Assembly: GCA_021030905.1 (NCBI GenBank)
Contig: JAGFMI010000017.1
Span: 806,001-870,000 of the forward strand
Direction: 5' to 3'
Length of the DNA stretch: 64,000 bases
Source: Pyrenula massariospora
Lineage: Eukaryota > Ascomycota > Eurotiomycetes > Pyrenulales > Pyrenulaceae
Made by a program: the position numbers and the translations under genes. This document shows, one piece after another, positions 9,945 through 63,244 of this stretch. How positions within the stretch are numbered: position 1 is the stretch's first letter; each line of letters begins with the position of its first letter. The notes under the pieces were generated by a model. It had not been told where the DNA came from, did no database searches, and saw nothing but the letters and a program-made list of their open reading frames with translations.

Positions 9945-10980
<1,036 letters not shown>

Positions 10981-18251: not shown

Positions 18252-21200
18252 CTACGTCTCGTAGAGCTCCCGAAACGCGCTCCCCTCGGTCCGCAGCAGG
18301 GTGCCGGGATGTCCGCACTCGAGGACCTTCCCGCCGGGGCCGAGAACGACGACCTTGTCGAAGTCGACGATGGTCTTGAGGCGGTGGGCGACGGACAGGA
18401 TGGTGCAGGCGGCGAAGGAGTCGCGGATGATCTTCTGCATGAGGGCGTCGGTGTGGACGTCGACGCTGGAGGTTGGGGTGGTGGAGGTTAGTAGAGTAGC
18501 TCTGGAGTACGAGGGATAGAAGATGAGACCGTTGTGGTGGCGGGGGTTGGGGAGAGGTGTTGCAGAGCGAGTAAAGAAGATGGTCTTGGAATGGACGAGA
18601 GTTACACATACCTGCTTGTTACTTCATCAAGCACAACTATTTTGCTCTTCCTTAGTAGTGCTCTCGCTAGGCAGAAGAGCTGTCTTTGGCCGTGGCTGAA
18701 GAAGTCGTTGCTCATCTCTACGTCTAGACCTCCCTTGCCTTGTACCAAGTCCCACAGCTCGACTCTCTTTAAAGCTGAAATGATCTCTTCATCTGAAGGA
18801 TGAGCACCTTGCTCACTAGAAGCAGCCGTCCATGGACTCGCATTTACGCGCACTGATCCAAGCAAAAAGTACGGCTCTTGAGGAATAACGTTGATCCTCT
18901 GTCGAACAAGCTCCCGTGGGACAAAGGAGAGGTCAACACCGTCGATGGTGATGAGCCCGTCGCGGTACTCGAGAATGTGTAATATCGAAGACAGAAGACT
19001 TGATTTCCCGCTTCCGCTCCGCCCACAGATACCGACCTTCTCTCCAGTTGCAATGGTGAGGTTGACGTCGTTGAGGACAAGACGTGATTCGCTGTCGTAA
19101 GAAGCTGCAAAATGCCTGATCTCAATTGATCCTTCCAAGGGCCACTCCTTTGGCGGCTCGGTGTTCTCGCTCGGCCGGGATTCGGAAGTAGTTTGAGTGA
19201 TGAAGGATTTAATGCGGGCGATCGCACCAATAGAAGTTTCTAGCCTCGTCCAGGATTTGATCAAATCGGCTAGTTGCTCGTTGAAAGACATTACGTTAAG
19301 CAGTCCTAGACCGACGTAACCTGGACTGACCTTATCGCGGAGCGCGACGATCATGATGACCATGATGACTGCCAGAGCGGCAACTATCAGGTCCAAGACG
19401 ACCTGGAGCCAGCGCTGGATACAAAAGAGTGTGTAGAATGGCTTTTGAGATTCATCGAGGTATAATAAGTTCCGTTCGCTGAAAGCGTGACTCCAGCCAA
19501 AGGCACGGACTGTGGCCAGGCCATTAAGTGTTTCTTGAAAGAGCGTGTACAGTGGTGCTTTCGCTTCGAGTTCGAGTATTCGAATTTGCCTCGATGTTTT
19601 GATGTAAAATTTCTGAACGGCATAGAGTGTGACCAAGACAAATGGCAATACAGCTCCGAAATAACTAGCTGATACACTCATCAGGATGCCCACTGCCAGG
19701 GTTACGAACACCGCTTCAAAATCTCAAGTCAATCTCTATTCCGAGCTCTTCTTGTCTCAAAAGGTAGCCTTACCTAATATTGTCTCTATGAGAGAGTAAG
19801 GAAGTTCGACTGTAGTGTTGTCAATATGCTAGAACTGGATCAATTCAATAGGTCGCCTACCATCTACAAGGGCTATATCATTACTGAATCTGTGTAAATG
19901 CGTTAGATCCTGGTCCTGAATGAGTAAATCGGAACGGGATATACCTGCTCAGGAGTGAGCCTGAATCTGATTTGGTGAAGAAATGCAATGGTGCGCTAAT
20001 TCAATGTTAGCACAAAGACATTATGTGTAGTGAAATGGCACACTTGATGACCGTTTCCAACAAAGCACTGTGAAGGCTTTTCGAGGACCTAGGAACCATA
20101 TAGCCAAGAAGCATCCTGCCTTAATTAGTGTTGCAAACCATAGATATGAAGGTCCTCGACTTATTGGGAGAGCCTACCAAACGCCTATAATAAGACTGAT
20201 GAGACATAGCAACGTGAACAATCCGTATATGCTCATGTAGAATGTATCGTTGCCTCGATTTTCAATCCAAAATTTGACCCAGAGTTCTATTTCAGATCAG
20301 TTTACCAGTGAAGATTGATTCTGGATCGAATATACCTGGGAATTTTAAAAAGAACACAAATCCACAGATGGCAAGCGTAAATGGAATAATAGCATAGACA
20401 CCCAGCGACAAGAAATAGTACTTATAAATTTGCCAGTCCCCAGTCTTCTGGGCAGGGTCTGCTTCAGCTGTAGCTGTGGCAGATTCTTTTATAGGTGGCT
20501 TGGTAGGCACCGGAGAGTCAGGCTGATCAGTTCGCTGTTTCATTTCCCGTGCTTCTCTGGAAATGCTTTGCACATAGCCGCCCGCCGATCGAAGGGATTC
20601 CCAAGACCCCTGTTCCAGAATAGTGCCATCGGAGCCAAGAGCAACAATGTGGTCGGCATAAGGTAGCCGGTGTGCTGTCGGCCGATTAGCTTATCGACAC
20701 AGTAAAGAGAAGGTAAGTCCATACCTGCATGGGTGATGAGGATGACGGTTGTTGGCAATTTTCGAAGAAGACCATCTTGACTGAATAGCCTATCGAATAT
20801 TTTTTCTTCGGTATCGGCATCCAGGCCGCTAAAAACGTCGTCGAAAATGATCGTTTCGGTCTTCTGGTAAATTGCTCTAGCCATGGCTAGCCGTTGCTTC
20901 TGACCGCCACTTAAAGATATGCCTTTGGATCCAACCATCGTATCGTCACGTTCGGGGAGGATGGTGAGATCTTCATCCAAGGCACAGCCGGCAACCACGG
21001 TATCATACCATGTCTGGTCAAAAGTTGAGAGCCCGATGATGTTGTCTTTCAAGGAGCAGTTCTGGATCCAAGGGTCCTGATCGGCGAGTGCTGTCTTCAA
21101 AGAACTCGTATAAACAAAGCCTTTCGACGTTGGAGTTTCGCCTAGCAAGCCTTTAACAAGAGTTGACTTTCCAACGCCGGTCTTGCCCACAACAAGGACA

Positions 21201-27871: not shown

Positions 27872-28563
27872 AGACCTTCATTTCTTGTTGTTCTTTCTAG
27901 TGTTGATAGCATCTTTGGCGGATGTCAGGGGATGGCCAAATGCTGCTTTTTGTGACGATACCTAGGGGCTCGAAATAGAAACAATTGTATCATGACTGGG
28001 AGCTCTATAATTGCCTTGCGAAGTTTGATACCTATTTTGTCAAAGAACCGGAATATTCCATTCGCCTAACGACGTGCTCTAACGTTCCTAAGACGGTGTT
28101 TCCCAAGTTTCAATCGAAGGCCCTTAAAGATATGCCTGCTTTGCTCACCTCCTCGGTTCGCTCCGCAGCTGGTTGCCCTAAGCCGATTTGGGAGTTCCTT
28201 CGAGAGCCTTCCACTCCAGCGTAATCCCGGTGTTGCGCACCACAATCACTTATTCTCACTCTTCTGCCTGGCAAATTGCAGTCACGACGACTGCAGTTAC
28301 ATAGTGGTGAAGGTACGTTCGTTCCGCCGTCTCCTCGCCTCATATGATGTGACTATAAGCTGGCACCAGTCCTAGAAGACTTGTACTCTTTTTATGCGGA
28401 CTAGCTTGCGCAGGCTATGACCTCGCCTATCTGACTAAAGTCTTGCACGAGAATTTTCTTGCGAATATCCTACTTCTTGACTAACACGTGCTTTAGTGAC
28501 CTGCGAATCGAAGCCCGTGCTTGCCCGCCGTCTTTTGGTCACACTCGCCCACAGCCTTTCACA
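27872..28563. promoter_or_regulatory. Spacer upstream of aha1
   Basis: About 0.7 kb holding the 3' region of the secreted-protein gene and the aha1 promoter. No gene was recognised. Confidence 0.4.
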
Positions 28564-29713: not shown

Positions 29714-30288
29714 GACAAGAGGACCGAAAACTGCACATGGCGTTACTGAGTTTTTGCAAAGCGTAAGAATGACGGCTGGCCATGTCCCAATGCAGTACCA
29801 AGGGGTCCGGCTAAAAAGCATAGACAATTTAGTATTTGATAAATCGATCTCTCACGAGTATCCAAGATGCTTCCTCGGTAAATCTCTAAACTCTACGCAA
29901 TCCCAGTGGCTAGCAAAAAACTTTTCTTTTCATATCCATTTTCATGTATTGTTAGAAAATCGGCAATGACATGTGAAAGCTATGGAACATATTCGTTATG
30001 GGGAACGAGACACGAGGACGGCAATTTGGCGATGGGCCTAGAACTCGCGATCCGCGCCAGGTAAAACATGCAAGATGTGGCTGGGCATCCGGTTTTTTTG
30101 ACGTCATGCTGGAGATTTGTGGCGCCCGCATCTCCAATCCTCCATCTTTTCCTGTTTATAGCTTTGGTACCTAGACATGTGTCCTAGCTTAATGAATGCA
30201 GGAATCCTCTCCATTTAATACTGTAATTCCGCCTCAGAACCACACAATCAAAGCTACGCTCTCGTAGCCAACGTCAAGGGGGCCCAAG
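29714..30288. other. Intergenic between aha1 and the DUF726 gene
   Basis: It contains the aha1 3' region and the DUF726 promoter. Nothing else was recognised. Confidence 0.4.
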
Positions 30289-33200
30289 ATGCCTCCCAAA
30301 CCCGCATCTTCCTCCCCCGCCCCGGCGAAGCAAAAGCAACAACAACAGCAGCCCAGCAAAGACGGCAAGGATGGCGACGACCTCACCACAATCCTCGACC
30401 CCTCCCAACGCGCCGACCTCACCCTCCTCCTCGCCTCCGTCACCGAATCCATGCGCACCCTCCTCCTCGACAACTTCAGCCCCACCGCCGGCCTCAAGAC
30501 GCGCGAGACCCGCCCGGGCATGAGCGAGGAGGAGAAGATCCTGAACGCGTCGATCGACCCGGCTTCCGCGGACGTGGCCGCGTACGACAAGGAGAGGAAG
30601 CTGAAGGCGCAGTTTGAGAAGGAGCTCGCGCAGCCCCCGGTGAAAAGGCTGAAGGCGGATGCGCTGCGGGCGTATGACGAGTGGCGGGAGGATGTGATTC
30701 TGCGGGTGGGGCAGGTGGTGAATAGCCAGGAGAAGGCAAGGGAGCAGGTAAAGCAGACGGGCGGGGTGAAGGCGTTGCCGCAGGCGCCGAATCAGCGGAG
30801 CCGGGGGGATGTGGTGAGCCCGCTGGGGGGGATTGTCAAGTTTAAGGATCTGTATGCGCCGACGAAGACGCCGCTGACGAAGCTGTCGATGCAGCAGAGG
30901 GGGTTGGTTTTGCATTCGATTTTTCTGCTGTTGTTGTCGCTGGAGCATTATAATGCGAGGTCGAGGACGCTGCTGTTGAATCTTACTTCGTCGCTGAAGC
31001 TGCCGCTTAAGACGTTTGAGGAGGATGAGGCGAAGGTTGCGAAGGGGTTGCTGGAGCAGGCTAAGGAGTTGTCGGCTGATCAGGAAACTAAGAAAAAGGT
31101 TGAAGCTAACCGAGACAATCGGAAGTGGAAAGTCGGCATTGCAACCGTGGCAGGAGCTGCCATCATCGGCGTGACTGGTGGTCTTGCAGCTCCTCTGGTA
31201 GCCGCGGGTGTAGGGTCGGTAATGGGAGGACTTGGCCTCGGTGCGACCGCTGCAGCTGGTTATCTTGGCTCCGTCGCTGGCAGCACTGTCATTGTGGGCA
31301 GCTTGTTTGGAGCTTACGGCGGAAGGATGACAGGGAAGATGATGGACAACTATGCCAAAGAGGTCGAAGACTTTGCGTTCATCCCGGTGCATTCTGCTAC
31401 CAAGACGAGCGAAGAAGAGGACAAAGGGGCTGCTCAGGCAAGCGCCCATGATCACAAGCTCCGCTTGACAATCTGCATCTCGGGTTGGCTGACTAGCCAG
31501 GACGACGTTGTCAAACCATGGCGGGTGATTGGAACAGGTGCTGAAGTCTTCGCTCTTCGTTGGGAATTGGAGGCGTTGTTGAACCTTGGGAACGCCATAT
31601 CATCAATGGTAACTTCCGCTGCCTGGGGTTACGCCCAGAAAGAAATCATCGCGCATTCCATTTTCGCGGAGCTGGCTTCTGCGTTATGGCCGATCGGATT
31701 GGTCAAGGTTGCCCGCGTCATTGATAACCCCTTTAGCGTCGCAAAAGACCGAGCGGATAAAGCCGGAGAAGTCCTTGCAGACGCTCTCGTGAACAAGGCT
31801 CAAGGAGAGCGACCCGTCACGCTGATAGGATACTCTCTTGGAGCTCGCTTGATCTATACCTGTCTGTTGAGCCTGGCGAGGCGGAAAGCATTCGGACTCG
31901 TAGAGTCAGCCGTGCTCATTGGCGCTCCAACACCTTCAGACACTGCAGATTGGCGGAAATTGAGGACTGCCGTCTCAGGCCGGTTGATCAACGTCTATTC
32001 GCAAAATGACTATGTCCTTGGCTTCATGTACCGAACTTCTTCTGTTCAATATGGTGTTGCTGGCTTGCAACAAGTCGAAGGACTTCCAGGGGTTGAAAAC
32101 TTTGATCTAAGTGAGGATGTGAGCGGCCACCTGAAGTACCGATACTTGATTGGAAGCATCTTGAAAAAGATCGGCTTCGAAGATATTGATATGAAGGCTG
32201 TGGAGGTTGAGCAGGAGGAGCTCAAGAAAATGGAAGAGGAGGAAAAGAAGCAATCACTTCAATCGCAGAGGAAGCGGCTGCTTCGCAGACAATCCATGCA
32301 AGGCAAGGAAGACGAGAATGCGGAAGCGGAAGCGGAAGCTCAGGATCTGCAGAAGGAGATCGAGGCAAAGACACAAAAGAGCTTGATGACCCGCGCAGTG
32401 GAATGGTGGTACCTTGGAAGACAGCCCGGTATCAAGGGTGCAGAGAAGGCCGTCGGAGGTGCTGCAGATGCTGCGTCGAGCGTGGCAAAGAATCCAACAG
32501 AAGCCCAAAATGTTGCGTCGAAGACGGCAACGGATGCTCAAAAGTCAACACAGTCCTACACCAAGCTTGCTGCTAGCTATCTACCAAACGTGCCAGGTCG
32601 AGGAAAGCAAAGTACGCCTGTTGATGCAAGCAAAGGCGTGCCAGACACGGGAAAGAAGTTTCCAGGAGCAGCTGACGCTGGAAAGACTGCCTCACAAGCC
32701 ACGAAGCCAGTACAATCGTACACTCAAAAGGCCGCAGGGTATATCCCCAATTTCCGAGGTCAATCAAAACCGGCCGTTCCAGCAGATGCCACCAAGCAGG
32801 TCCAGGCTCCAGGCAAAGCTGTAGCCTCGCCGGGAAGCACTCCAATCAAGTCTCCAACAAAAGGTGTGACATCGCCAAGCAGCACTCCAGTCAAGTCCCC
32901 AAGCGCAGGCGTCGCGTCTCCAGGAGCCGCCAAATCGCCCTTATCGAACGCTGCCCAACAGAGCCAGGGCTACGCTCAACGCGCAGCCGGCTACTTCCCC
33001 AGCATGCCTTCACGCGGTAAATCTTCAACATCTAACGCAACCAAAGCCGTGACGTCCCCAGGCAAAGAAACACCATCTCCTGGAAGCGTAAAGCGAACTG
33101 CATCCAACACCCAACAACAAGCCAGCAGCTACACGCAGCGCGCCGCAGGCTATCTTCCAAACGTAGGAGGTATCGCAGGACGCGGCAAGCCCTCAACACC

Positions 33201-33714
33201 GAGCACTCCAGGCACAAAAGACGTGCCTTCTCCCGCAGTTAAGAACGGCACACCCAACGCACCTAAAACGCTAGAGGCAACGCCGCAAAGCAAAACGGCG
33301 AGCCCGGCGCAGGGCTACACCCAGCGCGCGGCAGGCTACCTCCCATCGATGCCGAAGTTTGGCAGATCCCCGTCGCAGGCTGTGAACAAGCAAGCCTCGA
33401 GCCCGGCGCCCAAAGCGACGACGGATGGCGCGAAGGCGGCGAAAGATGGGAAGAGACCGAGCCTGCCAGGTGGGACGGAGAGGAAGGCGTCCGCGCCGAA
33501 GCTGCCAAGGACGCCGAGCGGGGTGGAGAAGAGGACGTCGTCGACGCCGAAGGTGCCGCAGACGGAAAGAACGGGGTCGACGCCGAGGGTGCCGCAGACG
33601 CCGGGGAGTGTGGAGAAGAAAGCGTCGATGCCGAAGGTGCCGCAGATGCCTGGACGGCAGGGTTCGCAGGCTCAGGTGGGGCAGTCAGTCAAGTCGCCGG
33701 GGTCAAAAGGGTAG
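30289..33714 (+). CDS. DUF726 (TMCO4/Mil1-like) lipase-fold membrane protein with C-terminal repeats
   Basis: An intronless gene of 1141 aa. The family includes human TMCO4 and yeast Mil1, alpha/beta-hydrolase-like membrane proteins. A Gly/Ala-rich double hydrophobic segment lies at about 280-343. The hydrolase region includes ISGWLTSQDD, FALRWELEAL and GYSLGARLI, giving the nucleophile motif GxSxG near 512, then VLIGAPTPSD and NDYVLGFMYR. A coiled stretch follows (about 640-690). The C-terminal 400 residues are low in complexity and hold five spaced copies of a YTQRAAGYLPN-like motif (about 755, 809, 893, 946 and 1009), separated by Pro/Ser/Thr/Lys spacers. The extreme C-terminus is repetitive (STPKVPQT-like units). 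The core is conserved; the repeats are lineage-specific as far as I can judge. Membrane lipid hydrolysis is plausible, not shown. Confidence 0.88.
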   Translation: MPPKPASSSPAPAKQKQQQQQPSKDGKDGDDLTTILDPSQRADLTLLLASVTESMRTLLLDNFSPTAGLKTRETRPGMSEEEKILNASIDPASADVAAYDKERKLKAQFEKELAQPPVKRLKADALRAYDEWREDVILRVGQVVNSQEKAREQVKQTGGVKALPQAPNQRSRGDVVSPLGGIVKFKDLYAPTKTPLTKLSMQQRGLVLHSIFLLLLSLEHYNARSRTLLLNLTSSLKLPLKTFEEDEAKVAKGLLEQAKELSADQETKKKVEANRDNRKWKVGIATVAGAAIIGVTGGLAAPLVAAGVGSVMGGLGLGATAAAGYLGSVAGSTVIVGSLFGAYGGRMTGKMMDNYAKEVEDFAFIPVHSATKTSEEEDKGAAQASAHDHKLRLTICISGWLTSQDDVVKPWRVIGTGAEVFALRWELEALLNLGNAISSMVTSAAWGYAQKEIIAHSIFAELASALWPIGLVKVARVIDNPFSVAKDRADKAGEVLADALVNKAQGERPVTLIGYSLGARLIYTCLLSLARRKAFGLVESAVLIGAPTPSDTADWRKLRTAVSGRLINVYSQNDYVLGFMYRTSSVQYGVAGLQQVEGLPGVENFDLSEDVSGHLKYRYLIGSILKKIGFEDIDMKAVEVEQEELKKMEEEEKKQSLQSQRKRLLRRQSMQGKEDENAEAEAEAQDLQKEIEAKTQKSLMTRAVEWWYLGRQPGIKGAEKAVGGAADAASSVAKNPTEAQNVASKTATDAQKSTQSYTKLAASYLPNVPGRGKQSTPVDASKGVPDTGKKFPGAADAGKTASQATKPVQSYTQKAAGYIPNFRGQSKPAVPADATKQVQAPGKAVASPGSTPIKSPTKGVTSPSSTPVKSPSAGVASPGAAKSPLSNAAQQSQGYAQRAAGYFPSMPSRGKSSTSNATKAVTSPGKETPSPGSVKRTASNTQQQASSYTQRAAGYLPNVGGIAGRGKPSTPSTPGTKDVPSPAVKNGTPNAPKTLEATPQSKTASPAQGYTQRAAGYLPSMPKFGRSPSQAVNKQASSPAPKATTDGAKAAKDGKRPSLPGGTERKASAPKLPRTPSGVEKRTSSTPKVPQTERTGSTPRVPQTPGSVEKKASMPKVPQMPGRQGSQAQVGQSVKSPGSKG

Positions 33715-59348: not shown

Positions 59349-61203
59349 ATGGGTCGCCTAATACCTAATGCCTTCAACCTAGGTATCGTGATCTTTGTCG
59401 CCATTGGCTCCACTTGCTGCAGCTATGGCATGTCTGTGATCTCTTCCACCATCGGACAGCCCTCTTTCTACACCCACTTTCATCTTGCGACGGAAGGCAT
59501 GCCTGGTTATGCCCGCACCTCGAACCTCATCGGCGCAGCCAATGGGCTCAGCTGCGCCGGCTCCGCCTTCGGTGCCACCTTGACGGCATGGGCCGCTGAA
59601 AGGTTCGGCAGGAGAATATGCATACAACTAGGAGCTCTGGTTTCGATCATAGGAGCGGCTCTGTGTGCAGCTAGTGTAGACATGGGAATGTTTTTGGCGG
59701 CGAGGTTTATTGCTGGGGTTGGTGTTGGGGAGCTGATAACAGGGATTCCTATGTGCGTAATTTGGACATCACTTGAACATTGTGTTGATACTGACGATTT
59801 AGCAGGTACCAAGCGGAGTGCTCGACGCCGGAATCGAGGGGCTTCATGGTTTCGATGCATGGGGTAATGTTTGCTGTACGTCCTTCGCCATACCAATTCT
59901 TTTCAGGGCAGAGCTTAGCCATTCTCAAGTGCATACCAGGCTAAAGATGACTTATAGGTCGGCTATTCTCTCTCCGCCTGGATAGGCTTCGGCTGCTACT
60001 TTCTCTCTGCTTCAGGATCCGAATCCTCTTTCCCCTGGCGTTTTCCCTTAGCTTTCCAAGCTGCGCCGGCACTCCTCTTATTAGCTGGTTCTCCATGGTT
60101 GCCAGAAACACCTCGCTGGCTGCTCTCTCATGGTCGACCAGATAAAGCTCACCAGATCCTCCAGCGTCTGCATTACCAACCTCGAGGTGCACATCAGAAT
60201 GTCGCTGAGAGAGAATTTTTCCAGATGACGAAGCAGCTCGAAATGGACCGTGAGATCCGCGCTCAACTCGAGAAAACAGGTGGTGGTGGAATGTTCGAGC
60301 TCTTTAGGACCAAGCCGAATCGGATGAGAGCTTGGGTGGGATTCTCGCTAATGTTTGGGAATATTTTCACCGTATATACTCTAACGCCTCTCCACTATCT
60401 TCTCCGACTTTCGCCGCAGCTTCACTACTTGAAACACTAGCTGACGTTCTCTATATTCTATTTAGGGAGCAATCGTAATTGCCAACTACGGTGTCCTCCT
60501 CTACGCCTCCCTCGGCCTCACCACCTACAAACCCCTCCTCCTCTCCGCCCTGTGGGTCACCGTCTCCTTCCCCGGCAACGTCTTCACCGCCTTCTTCGTC
60601 GACCGCATCGGCCGCCGCTTCTTCCTGCTCACCGGCCTCGCCGGCCTCGTCGTCACCCTGTGCTTCGAGTGCGCGCTCCAGGCCCGCTACCTGGCCTCCA
60701 CCAACGCCGCCGGCCAGCGCGCCGCCGTCTTTTTTCTGTTTTTGTTTATATTCTTCTGGTCCACGTTCATGGACGCGAGCCAGTACCTCTACCTCGCCGA
60801 GATCTTCCCGACGCATCTGCGCAGCCAGGGCGTGGCGTTGGGGATGGTCGGGCTGTACACGGCGGCGGTGGTCATCCTCGTCGCGGGCCCGATTGCGCTG
60901 GATGTGATCAAGTGGAAGTTTTTTCTCGTGTTGATCTTGCCGACGAGTCTGCACTGGGTGAATGTGTACTTTTTGTTTCCGGAGACGAAGAATCGGAGTT
61001 TGGAGGATATCAATGTGGCGTTTGGGGAGAAGGTTGCGGTGAGGTATTATGGGGCGGGGACGGAGGAGGAGGAGATATATGCGAGGGCTCTGGCGGAGGC
61101 GGAAGCGAGGGTTGGGAAGGGAAACGTCGTAAACAGCCTGGAAGAGAAAGATGAGATGGCGGACGAGACGCGGGTCGAAAACGTCAAGCAGACAATGCCC
61201 TGA
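59349..61203 (+). CDS. MFS sugar-porter family transporter
   Basis: A 541-residue proton-coupled or facilitative sugar transporter of the plasma membrane. Exons are 59349-59752, 59806-59875 (70 nt), 59958-60371 and 60466-61203, phases consistent. Sugar-porter signatures appear in order: ERFGRR after TM2 (the RxGRR motif), RFIAGVGVGELITGIPMYQAE (loop after TM4), LPETPRWLLSHGR (PESPRWL motif), VDRIGRRFFLL (second half), YLAEIFPTHLRSQG and FPETKNRSLEDI (PETK motif). The usual GQQ-xG-N element in TM7 is replaced by FGNIFTGAIVIANYG, so substrate choice may differ from hexose carriers. The tail is acidic. The substrate is not known. Confidence 0.92.
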
Positions 61204-61648
61204 GTCACAGGGATAGAATTGCATATTCGACTGCACGTTACGGCGGTGTGAAGGATCTACATCAAGGGATTTGATCGTGGAAACCGTGAAAGTAGACAGG
61301 TACCAAAGGTCGCAATCTGCTATTCAGATACTGTAGGTAGGAGTAGCGGTATGGGCTAGACGTAATACTTTTCTATGCTACCCAGCTGCCTCAGTAAGCG
61401 AATTGACCTTGGGGGACTTTCTTAGCTCGACTAGCCGCGACAACCGGTCATCAACCCTCCACAGTATCGCGCAGAAGTACGAACCTGTTGGAAGGTTAGC
61501 GTATTATTGGATCCTGACGCAGTGCATAGAGGTTGTGCTAGTACGTAGAAAAGTGGAGGTTGGTCATATCCGGCGACAACGTAAAGCGATGCACGTTTTC
61601 GTCGTTTTATCGTGCTATTAAAAGGATACAGAGGAAACCCAGGGAAAC
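61204..61648. other. Spacer between the transporter and the tRNA gene
   Basis: The transporter's 3' region. A 72-codon plus-strand frame at 61403 has no motif. Nothing else was seen. Confidence 0.4.
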
Positions 61649-61656
61649 AAAAAAAA
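61649..61656 (-). terminator. RNA polymerase III terminator (T8)
   Basis: Read on the minus strand, eight T residues follow four bases (ATTG) after the tRNA discriminator base. This is the standard Pol III stop and supports the tRNA gene being a transcription unit. Confidence 0.8.
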
Positions 61657-61660
61657 CAAT

Positions 61661-61805
61661 CGACAGAGACGAGAGTCGAACTCGCGCATCCGAAGATAAC
61701 AGCTTTTCACAACAATAATAGCAGGCTGTCGCCTTAACCCTGTTGATTTCATTAATGGCGGTACTGCGGGAAATGTGATGTTAACTGACACTCGGCCACT
61801 CTGTC
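61661..61805 (-). tRNA. tRNA-Ser(GCU) with anticodon-loop intron and an extra D-loop insertion
   Basis: All stems pair: acceptor GACAGAG with CTCTGTC, D stem GCC with GGC, anticodon stem ACAGC with GCTGT, a variable arm with a UUCG loop, and T arm GCGAG-TTCGACT-CTCGT. The discriminator is G, as expected for serine. The anticodon loop CTGCTA...A gives anticodon GCU (61722-61720), followed at the normal 37/38 position by a 14-nt intron (61718-61705). The D loop should read GAGTGGTTAA but is split after GAGTG by 50 extra bases (61788-61739). Removing both inserts leaves 81 nt, normal for tRNA-Ser. The B box (GAGTTCGACTC) is intact and the A-box core TGGCCGAGTG lies just before the insert. A Pol III terminator follows. 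Confidence 0.85.
61739..61788 (-). other. 50-nt insertion in the D loop of tRNA-Ser(GCU)
   Basis: The insert lies between the two invariant parts of the D loop. Both its left edge and the base sequence just after it contain GTTAA, so a short direct repeat surrounds most of it. Shifting the borders slightly gives a GT...AG segment of 52 nt (GTGTCA...CAACAG), like a minimal spliceosomal intron. It contains the palindrome CATTAATG. Whether it is removed, and by which enzyme, cannot be read from DNA. Confidence 0.7.
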
Positions 61806-63244
61806 AGCAATAAGTCTCAAAAAGTAAAATATATCTCAATATAATGATAGCTTGAAAGTGACAAATATCGGACTATCATGCTTAGACTTACAAGCAAGCC
61901 AGTAGGACCGCCGACAAACCTCTCACTCTGATCCTGACGTTAGTACGATCATTTAGCAGTGAGCGCTAGTAGTTAATTTTTTTTAGAACGGGCCTATGTA
62001 GGAACGTTCGGTTGTTTAAAGCGGGCTTTCAGTCGATGCCGCTTACTGCCCAAGGAATACATGGACGCCGGGATAAGGGATACGGCCAAGCTATCAACCA
62101 CCAATATATCCTCAGATTAAGTCTGCAGCGTGTTCTAGTGGAGGAATCTCAAGTCCTCCGCTTTCATTTCCCGCAACTTTCATGATGGACTTCGGTTTAC
62201 ATCTATCTCCAAAGTCTCGAGACCAGCTATTTATCTCAAGTCAGCTCTGGTCATCTTTCACCCCGTGAATTCTTGCGAGCCAGACCCATCGATGTATAAT
62301 GTCTTGCGATTGTGTTCAGATTTGTTGTGCGAATCATGCCGAGATCTTGCTACCGCTTGGCTCTTGCCGTGGCATAGACAACAAGGCTCTGGTGCTTACA
62401 GGTCGTAGATCACGGACTACGACTCCCACCTGCGAGTCCGGTACTAATCCTTGTGAGATAGCGCGCCGAGACCAGCTATCTCTACTTCGGTCCTAATAAT
62501 CGAGTCCTGCTCTTGGATGAAGAGGCTATGAGGCGGCTCGCGAAAGAGCGTTAGAAGATGGCAGGCAAAGGCAACGATTCTTGGAAACTTTAACCCTTGC
62601 TGGCATTTTTCAGAGTTGGCCTCGTGGCTGAAGTAGATCGATAGTTTTGGTCATAGGCCTCAAAGTCGTAGCTCCGTAAGTTTTCTGTCTCGTCTGTTCT
62701 TAAGCTATGCCATGTCTACAAGACGACCTTAGAGTTGCTGCGATGGAGAGCTCTTAGTAATCGGAGAAACAAACCAGAATGTCTGTCTCTTGAGCTAAAG
62801 AGCAACCCGACCGTGCGCTCTTCTCGCTGAATTATCCAATCCTTCAATTGGGGATCTAGAAATGGCAAAGTTTTGTTGGGCAGTTCTGCGGTTCGTCATA
62901 TGGTAGGCATTTCATCATAAACAGCCTCGCCGTTGCCTGGTTGAATGTGCCGCAGCGCTTCACCATTTACCCGCCCTCTTAGCATGAAATTTAGTCAATT
63001 GACATCCAGTAAAACATTGTGTGCCTGAAGAATCCACAGCCTCTGAGCAGGCTACAGTCGCCAAGCAATCGTGTCTGCCTGCGCAATTGAGTGGTAGTGA
63101 GTGCTTATAGGAAGAGATGAGAAATCTTGTTCTGTTCTTATCAACAACACTCATATAATCTGTCTAACGATTTGTCTCTTCTCAAAGGCTCGGACGAGTT
63201 CCTTGATTTGAATTTAGTAGTAAGTAAACATCCAAAACGCCAAA
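61806..63244. other. Gene-poor tract
   Basis: About 1.4 kb with scattered short frames and no recognisable domain on either strand. A possible degenerate protein-coding relic around 62170-62680 shows Cys- and Leu-rich fragments in several frames, too weak to call. Confidence 0.35.

What the first reader, a model, noticed from the sequence alone, without database searches (positions are those of the whole stretch)
61661..61805. tRNA-Ser(GCU) gene whose D loop is split by a 50-nt insertion
Seen directly: every stem of a tRNA-Ser pairs, a normal 14-nt intron follows position 37, a Pol III terminator follows, yet the D loop carries 50 extra bases. Nuclear tRNA introns of fungi are normally only at 37/38. 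D-loop introns are known from some archaea and red algae, not, to my knowledge, from filamentous fungi. Intact stems around the insert argue against a dead copy. Either a second intron must be spliced out, possibly by an unusual route (its edges can be set as GT...AG), or this gene is silenced.
Basis: partly seen in the sequence, partly recalled or inferred. Interest (0 to 1): 0.82.

Follow-up and report, generated by a model that had tools for sequence, protein, structure and literature searches.

The report
tRNA gene interrupted in its D-loop
A fungal gene for a serine transfer RNA carries 50 extra bases in its D-loop whose ends look like those of an ordinary messenger-RNA intron, so it is either a tRNA that needs the messenger-RNA splicing machine to mature, which would be new, or a recently broken gene copy.

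Summary
On the minus strand, 61805..61661 is a tRNA-Ser(GCU): 23 of 23 stem pairs form, a 14-nt intron follows nucleotide 37, and a run of eight T lies just beyond the gene. The D-loop is split by exactly 50 nt (61789..61740). ARAGORN misnames the gene as it stands and calls tRNA-Ser(gct) with the flanks joined.

What the insert is cannot be settled here: the genome is not held and no relative was found. Two tests separate the readings. A tRNA-endonuclease (BHB) motif is absent at the cuts that restore the loop. A spliceosomal reading fits: with those cuts fixed the insert is GTCAGT...ATTAAT...CAG, one mismatch each from the published fungal donor and branch consensus. Of 127,422 other 50-nt segments of the window placed at the same site, 16 do as well. 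A polyubiquitin gene in the window has a 52-nt GT-AG intron, so the length is normal.

I favour a spliceosomal-type intron in a Pol III tRNA gene (0.45) narrowly over a recently disrupted, silent copy (0.42), the usual reading of D-arm insertions in eukaryotic tRNA genes. RNA reads would decide.

The parts
61661..61805 (-). tRNA-Ser(GCU) gene, G1 (61805) to G73 (61661)
   Evidence: 23 of 23 stem pairs, GCT anticodon, G73; ARAGORN calls tRNA-Ser(gct) when the flanks are joined
61740..61789 (-). 50-nt insert in the D-loop, GT...AG register (the other register is 61739-61788)
61784..61789 (-). candidate 5' splice site GTCAGT, one mismatch to GTRWGT
   Evidence: consensus from PMC5832005
61751..61756 (-). 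candidate branch site ATTAAT, one mismatch to RCTRAY; 12 nt follow the branch A (61752) to the end of the insert
   Evidence: sequence, rule, mismatch count
61740..61742 (-). candidate 3' splice site CAG
61705..61718 (-). 14-nt intron at the ordinary position, after nucleotide 37
61789..61798 (-). A box (TGGCCGAGTG); its last G is shared with the insert and the G that should follow lies beyond the insert
   Evidence: A-box consensus recalled
61673..61681 (-). B box GTTCGACTC, starting 117 nt after the start of the A box
   Evidence: B-box consensus recalled
61649..61656 (-). run of eight T, taken as the Pol III terminator

Best explanation
The 50-nt insert is a small spliceosomal (GT-AG) intron lying at G18/G19 in the D-loop of a nuclear tRNA-Ser(GCU) gene. 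Proposed route: Pol III makes the precursor from the internal A and B boxes and stops at the T run. The spliceosome removes the D-loop intron first, restoring the conserved GG of the loop and so the elbow of the tRNA. RNase P and tRNase Z trim the ends, and the tRNA endonuclease and ligase remove the 14-nt intron after nucleotide 37. Shown: the gene anatomy, the exact loop-restoring GT-AG register, and the donor, branch and acceptor matches. Inferred: transcription, splicing, the order of steps, and any benefit to the cell.
For: The register is not free: two cut pairs restore the D-loop, and one of them gives GT...AG. There, donor GTCAGT and branch ATTAAT each have one mismatch to the published fungal consensus (GTRWGT, RCTRAY; PMC5832005, section 3.2 read), the acceptor is CAG, and 12 nt follow the branch A (published range 6-36). 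All 127,422 50-nt segments of both strands that do not overlap the locus were placed at the same site: 154 give GTnnG...YAG in a restoring register, 46 of these also a donor with at most one mismatch, 16 also a branch with at most one, 0 are perfect in both; some of the 16 overlap my candidate introns, so the background may be lower. Shuffles of the insert: 56 of 1,000,000. Earlier random draws that had not left out the locus itself gave 145 of 1,000,000 and, under looser rules of mine, 17 of 200,000. Length fits: a 52-nt GT-AG intron joins two ubiquitin-coding stretches of the polyubiquitin gene. Precedent: fungal U6 and U3 genes carry spliceosomal introns. All 23 stem pairs, the B box and the T run are intact.
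Against: No RNA evidence. Donor and branch are both off consensus: of 24 rule-based, mostly unverified candidate introns of the window, 9 score better than the insert, 2 the same, 2 worse, and 11 fall outside the rule; in fungal U3 introns the branch is RCTRAC in 129 of 138. In Saccharomyces, chance intron-like sites with divergent signals are spliced at a median of about 1% (PMC6726248, passages), so weak signals need not mean useful splicing. My searches listed no spliceosomal intron in a tRNA gene, so the prior is low. With the insert, the free fold (-38.8 kcal/mol) lies 10.2 below the cloverleaf (-28.6); with the flanks joined the gap is 3.6. No relative was found to show conservation.
Confidence: 0.45

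Rival explanations
1. A recently disrupted copy: about 50 bp of filler or insertion DNA landed in the D-loop, the transcript cannot fold or mature and is degraded, and intact tRNA-Ser(GCU) genes elsewhere do the work. The splice-like ends are chance.
For: A review says short insertions in D or T arms occur in various eukaryotic tRNA genes, mostly in one of many synonymous genes, and are supposed to be pseudogenes (PMC4090602, passages). The G18-G19 elbow and the end of the A box are broken. The precursor prefers another fold by 10.2 kcal/mol. The insert resembles nothing else in the window: its best non-self match of 22.3 bits is equalled or beaten by 147 of 200 random segments.
Against: The splice-signal match in a loop-restoring register is shown by only 16 of 127,422 other segments. 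No other damage is seen: 23 of 23 pairs, B box and T run are intact, though a young insertion would look the same.
Confidence: 0.42
2. The insert is removed by the tRNA splicing endonuclease from a bulge-helix-bulge motif, as in archaea and the red alga Cyanidioschyzon.
For: Eukaryotic endonuclease can cut BHB substrates (PMC4090602, passages), and tRNA-Ile(UAU) of C. merolae has a D-arm intron that is removed (PMC9602550, passages). Two cut pairs that remove 47 nt have a 4/4 central helix.
Against: At the two loop-restoring cuts only 2/4 and 1/4 central pairs form, no better than chance (2,622 of 5,000 random inserts do as well). The 4/4 cases are also chance (4,330 of 5,000) and would leave 3 extra bases in the loop.
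Confidence: 0.04
3. Assembly or sequencing artefact: the insert is not in the genome.
For: Reads could not be seen; the genome is not held.
Against: No N in the window and no copy of the insert elsewhere in it; a clean 50-nt insertion at one base position is an unusual assembly error (judgement).
Confidence: 0.04
4. The interrupted gene is kept for another role, such as a Pol III or TFIIIC landing site, a tRNA-derived or intron-derived small RNA, or a tRNA with a very large D-loop.
For: A box (bar its last G), B box and T run remain.
Against: Nothing specific points to it. None of the 4 weak Rfam matches at E up to 10 overlaps the insert.
Confidence: 0.05

Closest known systems
Spliceosomal introns in fungal U6 snRNA and U3 snoRNA genes
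   Same: Short GT-AG intron inside a small structured RNA; both are named as the only small structured RNAs known to be often interrupted by an intron, and U3 is described as transcribed by Pol III (PMC5832005, passages and section 3.2). That U6 is a Pol III product and that the fission-yeast U6 intron is about 50 nt are recalled.
   Different: Here the host RNA is a tRNA, which also has its own endonuclease-type intron; the donor and branch are weaker than usual; no RNA evidence.
D-arm introns of Cyanidioschyzon merolae and nucleomorph tRNA genes
   Same: Insertion in the D arm, in C. merolae tRNA-Ile(UAU) together with an anticodon-loop intron; D- and T-arm introns are supposed to leave before the anticodon intron (PMC9602550, passages).
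   Different: BHB motifs are seen as the determinant in C. merolae, and the nucleomorph mechanism is called unknown; no BHB is found here at the restoring cuts.
Eukaryotic tRNA genes with D- or T-arm insertions, taken as pseudogenes
   Same: One interrupted tRNA gene (PMC4090602, passages).
   Different: The insert here has exact intron-like ends, and nothing else in the gene is damaged.
Ordinary tRNA-Ser(GCU) with a 37/38 intron
   Same: Stems, anticodon, variable arm, G73, 14-nt intron.
   Different: The 50-nt D-loop insert.

Membership tests
Nuclear tRNA-Ser(GCU) gene | Cloverleaf stems, GCU anticodon, long variable arm, G73 | tested here: met
   23 of 23 pairs; anticodon and ends
Nuclear tRNA-Ser(GCU) gene | Uninterrupted D-loop with G18-G19 | tested here: not met
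   50-nt insert at G18/G19
Nuclear tRNA-Ser(GCU) gene | A box, B box, T-run terminator | tested here: met
   A box TGGCCGAGTG without the next G, B box GTTCGACTC, T8; A-B start distance 117 nt; consensus recalled
Fungal spliceosomal (GT-AG) intron | GT...YAG at the boundaries that restore the exon product | tested here: met
   GT...CAG in one of two restoring registers
Fungal spliceosomal (GT-AG) intron | Donor GTRWGT (deviations mostly of one position) | tested here: met
   GTCAGT, one mismatch; rule from PMC5832005
Fungal spliceosomal (GT-AG) intron | Branch RCTRAY 6-36 nt before the acceptor | tested here: inconclusive
   ATTAAT, one mismatch, 12 nt after the branch A
Fungal spliceosomal (GT-AG) intron | Excision shown in RNA, lariat | not testable with these tools
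   no RNA data
BHB (archaeal-type) tRNA intron | 4-bp helix between two 3-nt bulges at the splice sites | tested here: not met
   2/4 and 1/4 pairs at the restoring cuts
tRNA pseudogene | Decay of stems or promoter beyond the insertion | tested here: not met
   23 of 23 pairs, B box and T run intact; does not exclude a young pseudogene
tRNA pseudogene | Intact synonymous genes elsewhere, no mature product | not testable with these tools
   genome not held
Group I self-splicing intron | Catalytic core; match to an Rfam group I family | tested here: not met
   50 nt only; no such match at E up to 10 over 61501-61960

The most novel reading that the evidence does not exclude
A spliceosomal intron inside a nuclear tRNA gene: one Pol III precursor that must pass through two unrelated splicing machines, the spliceosome for the D-loop and the tRNA endonuclease/ligase for the anticodon loop. 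Since the usual eukaryotic tRNA search does not look for introns outside 37/38, such genes may be hidden in many fungal genomes.
Probability: 0.4. Interest if true: 0.87.

Novelty: new variant of a known kind. Interest (0 to 1): 0.56.

Why it matters
tRNA splicing and mRNA splicing are described as separate worlds (for instance PMC13149111, passages), and the tRNAscan-SE 2.0 paper calls eukaryotic tRNA genes limited to one intron and describes noncanonical-intron search for its archaeal model (PMC8450103, passages). A tRNA that needs the spliceosome would join the two, would add tRNA to U6 and U3 as small structured RNAs with spliceosomal introns, and would point to a class of genes that present annotation misses or misnames, as ARAGORN did here. 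If it is only a broken copy, it is a small curiosity.

Tried and rejected
Own-genome search for other tRNA-Ser(GCU) genes: not possible, no genome held. Exact-pattern scans for pieces of this gene, for a split D-loop, or for the uninterrupted form: 0 matches in 4 scans of viral contigs and in 2 scans of bacterial and archaeal genome contigs. These collections are not expected to hold fungi, so this says nothing about conservation.

BHB motif: rejected. Group I intron: no Rfam match. Repeat copy in the window: none; the best non-self hits are three 11-nt matches of 22.3 bits, equalled or beaten by 147 of 200 random segments. Target-site duplication: a GTTAA direct repeat lies near both junctions, but 1,130 of 5,000 random inserts also give a shared 5-mer there. 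A SNORD111-like match abutting the gene (61883..61805, 17.9 bits, gathering score 46, E 2.2) was judged chance. The 11-nt inverted match between the insert and 62165-62175 was judged chance on the window scale.

Candidate introns of the window were inferred by rule, not by homology (24 kept of 65). Of these 24, 11 fail the U3-derived rule outright, so they are a rough yardstick. One was checked against its protein, the polyubiquitin intron. De novo folding of the precursor is uninformative (z -0.77, 45 of 200 shuffles fold at least as well). My first random nulls drew from the whole window and so could draw the insert itself; the exhaustive count without the locus replaces them.

Literature: 10 counted searches. 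Listed were 20 of 2,802 papers (10), 20 of 28 (13), 15 of 15 (14), 15 of 457 (21), 15 of 331 (32), 15 of 2,196 (33), 15 of 19 (34), 0 (39), 0 (42) and 20 of 21 (51). No title or start of abstract in these lists names a spliceosomal or D-loop intron in a nuclear fungal tRNA gene; unlisted papers and papers not held were not seen. Read: passages of PMC4090602 (and part 1 of 2 of its section 18), PMC4033280, PMC8450103, PMC3978253, PMC11782384, PMC6726248, PMC9602550, PMC13149111 and PMC5832005 (and its section 3.2). The U6 intron survey PMC4829304 is not held.

Full report
OBSERVATION. The minus strand of 61805..61661 encodes a tRNA-Ser(GCU). All 23 of 23 stem pairs form: acceptor 7, D 3, anticodon 5, variable 3, T 5. 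The anticodon is GCT, a 14-nt intron follows nucleotide 37 (61718..61705), and a run of eight T lies at 61656..61649, four bases beyond the gene. The D-loop is broken by exactly 50 nt. One repeated G makes two registers possible: 61789..61740, which reads GT...AG, and 61788..61739, which reads TC...GG; both give the same joined product. That the product GAGTGGTTAAGGC is the usual eukaryotic tRNA-Ser D-loop is recalled knowledge. ARAGORN with introns allowed finds one gene in the window, this one, but names it tRNA-Asn(att) with a 57-nt intron; at a threshold lowered to 70% it lists 402 genes, taken as noise. With the flanks joined it names tRNA-Ser(gct), though it takes only 4 of the 14 intron nt as intron.

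SETTING. From 61324 to the window's end no stop-to-stop frame is longer than 94 aa; the nearest family match is a sugar transporter at 59958-60437 on the plus strand. I infer a filamentous fungus from the content: Utp7/BING4 with its best solved-structure match to entry 5oql, short GT-AG introns and an Aspergillus snoRNA family, Afu_190, at 28342-28435. The species could not be named and its genome is not held.

HOW IT COULD BE REMOVED: ENDONUCLEASE. D-arm introns are known from archaea, nucleomorphs and the red alga C. merolae (PMC4090602, passages; PMC9602550, passages); in archaea and, it seems, in C. merolae they rest on a bulge-helix-bulge. At the two cuts that restore the loop here the central helix has 2 or 1 of 4 pairs, and 2,622 of 5,000 random inserts do as well. 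A 4/4 helix exists for two cut pairs that remove 47 nt and would leave three extra bases; 4,330 of 5,000 random inserts give something as good. So there is no BHB evidence.

HOW IT COULD BE REMOVED: SPLICEOSOME. The restoring register fixes the ends of the insert. It reads GTCAGT at the donor, ATTAAT with 12 nt after the branch A, and CAG at the end (sequence). For fungal U3 introns PMC5832005 gives GTRWGT in 88 of 136 canonical donors, with almost all others one mismatch away, YAG in all but one acceptor, the fungal branch consensus RCTRAY with RCTRAC in 129 of 138, and 6-36 nt between branch and acceptor (section 3.2 read). The insert passes with one mismatch in the donor and one in the branch. 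All 127,422 50-nt segments of both strands of the window that do not overlap 61640-61830 were placed at the same site: 154 show GTnnG...YAG in a restoring register, 46 of these with a donor of at most one mismatch, 16 also with a branch of at most one mismatch, and 0 perfect in both. Some of the 16 overlap candidate introns of mine (for instance 20675-20725 and 59753-59802), so the true background may be lower. Of 1,000,000 shuffles of the insert, 56 pass. Earlier draws that included the locus gave 145 of 1,000,000 and, under looser rules, 17 of 200,000 segments and 16 of 200,000 shuffles. The length is ordinary: in the window's polyubiquitin gene a 52-nt GT-AG intron separates ...RLRGGMQI from VKTLTGK..., with the F codon split between the exons (ubiquitin family).

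AGAINST. Both signals are below par: of 24 rule-based candidate introns in the window 9 score better, 2 the same and 2 worse, and 11 fall outside the rule, so the yardstick is rough. Chance intron-like sites in Saccharomyces, which have divergent signals, are spliced at a median near 1% (PMC6726248, passages). The precursor with the insert folds 10.2 kcal/mol better in another shape than as a cloverleaf, against 3.6 with the flanks joined. No RNA data, no second copy and no relative could be seen; six pattern scans in viral, bacterial and archaeal contigs gave nothing, as expected for a fungal gene. A review states that short D- or T-arm insertions in eukaryotic tRNA genes are mostly in one of many synonymous genes and are supposed to be pseudogenes (PMC4090602, passages).

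WEIGHING. About one in 8,000 other segments does as well as the insert (16 of 127,422), but a true intron would show signals this weak only a few times in a hundred (my estimate from the U3 figures), so the evidence favours the intron by perhaps one or two hundred to one. The prior for a spliceosomal intron in a tRNA gene is low because none was listed in the searches that I made, although annotation is largely blind to it: the tRNAscan-SE 2.0 paper describes eukaryotic tRNA genes as limited to one intron and the noncanonical-intron search as part of its archaeal mode (PMC8450103, passages). I end near even: 0.45 for the spliceosomal intron, 0.42 for a recently disrupted copy, the rest for other readings. 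These weights are judgement.

PROPOSED WORKING. Shown: gene, insert, loop-restoring GT-AG register, B box and T run intact, the A box interrupted only at its last G, and A- and B-box starts 117 nt apart. Inferred: Pol III makes the precursor; the spliceosome takes out the D-loop insert before the tRNA fold is needed; the endonuclease then takes out the 14-nt intron. In C. merolae too the D- and T-arm introns are supposed to leave before the anticodon intron (PMC9602550, passages).

COMPARISON. The nearest known things are the spliceosomal introns of fungal U6 and U3 RNAs, which PMC5832005 (2017) calls the only small structured RNAs known to be often interrupted by an intron. If spliced, this tRNA would be a third. 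It is not a member of the BHB class by the test made. On paper it works like a spliceosomal intron; membership needs RNA proof.

Noticed in passing
window 28342-28435 (+): C/D snoRNA of the Aspergillus fumigatus family Afu_190 (RF01498, 56.5 bits, gathering 35).
   Followed up: partly
window 9987-10676 (-): Polyubiquitin gene: a 228-nt tandem array of 2.8 copies at 9987-10616, ubiquitin family, with a 52-nt GT-AG intron at 10625-10676 that splits an F codon between MQI and VKTL.
   Followed up: yes
window 61705-61718 (-): In the 14-nt tRNA intron the G that could pair with C32 lies four rather than three places before the 3' end, so the anticodon-intron pair would leave a bulge one base larger than the usual yeast form (usual form recalled; read off the sequence).
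   Followed up: no
window 61765-61775 and 62165-62175: An 11-nt perfect inverted match between the insert and DNA 389 nt away; on the scale of the window such matches are common.
   Followed up: partly
window 61805-61883 (-): A very weak SNORD111-like match directly upstream of the tRNA on the same strand (17.9 bits, E 2.2), probably chance.
   Followed up: no
window 30268-33711 (+): One 1,148-codon open frame with a DUF726 domain; other family matches in the window include MRG, Utp7/BING4 and ARMH3, BRAP2 and mitochondrial calcium uniporter.
   Followed up: no
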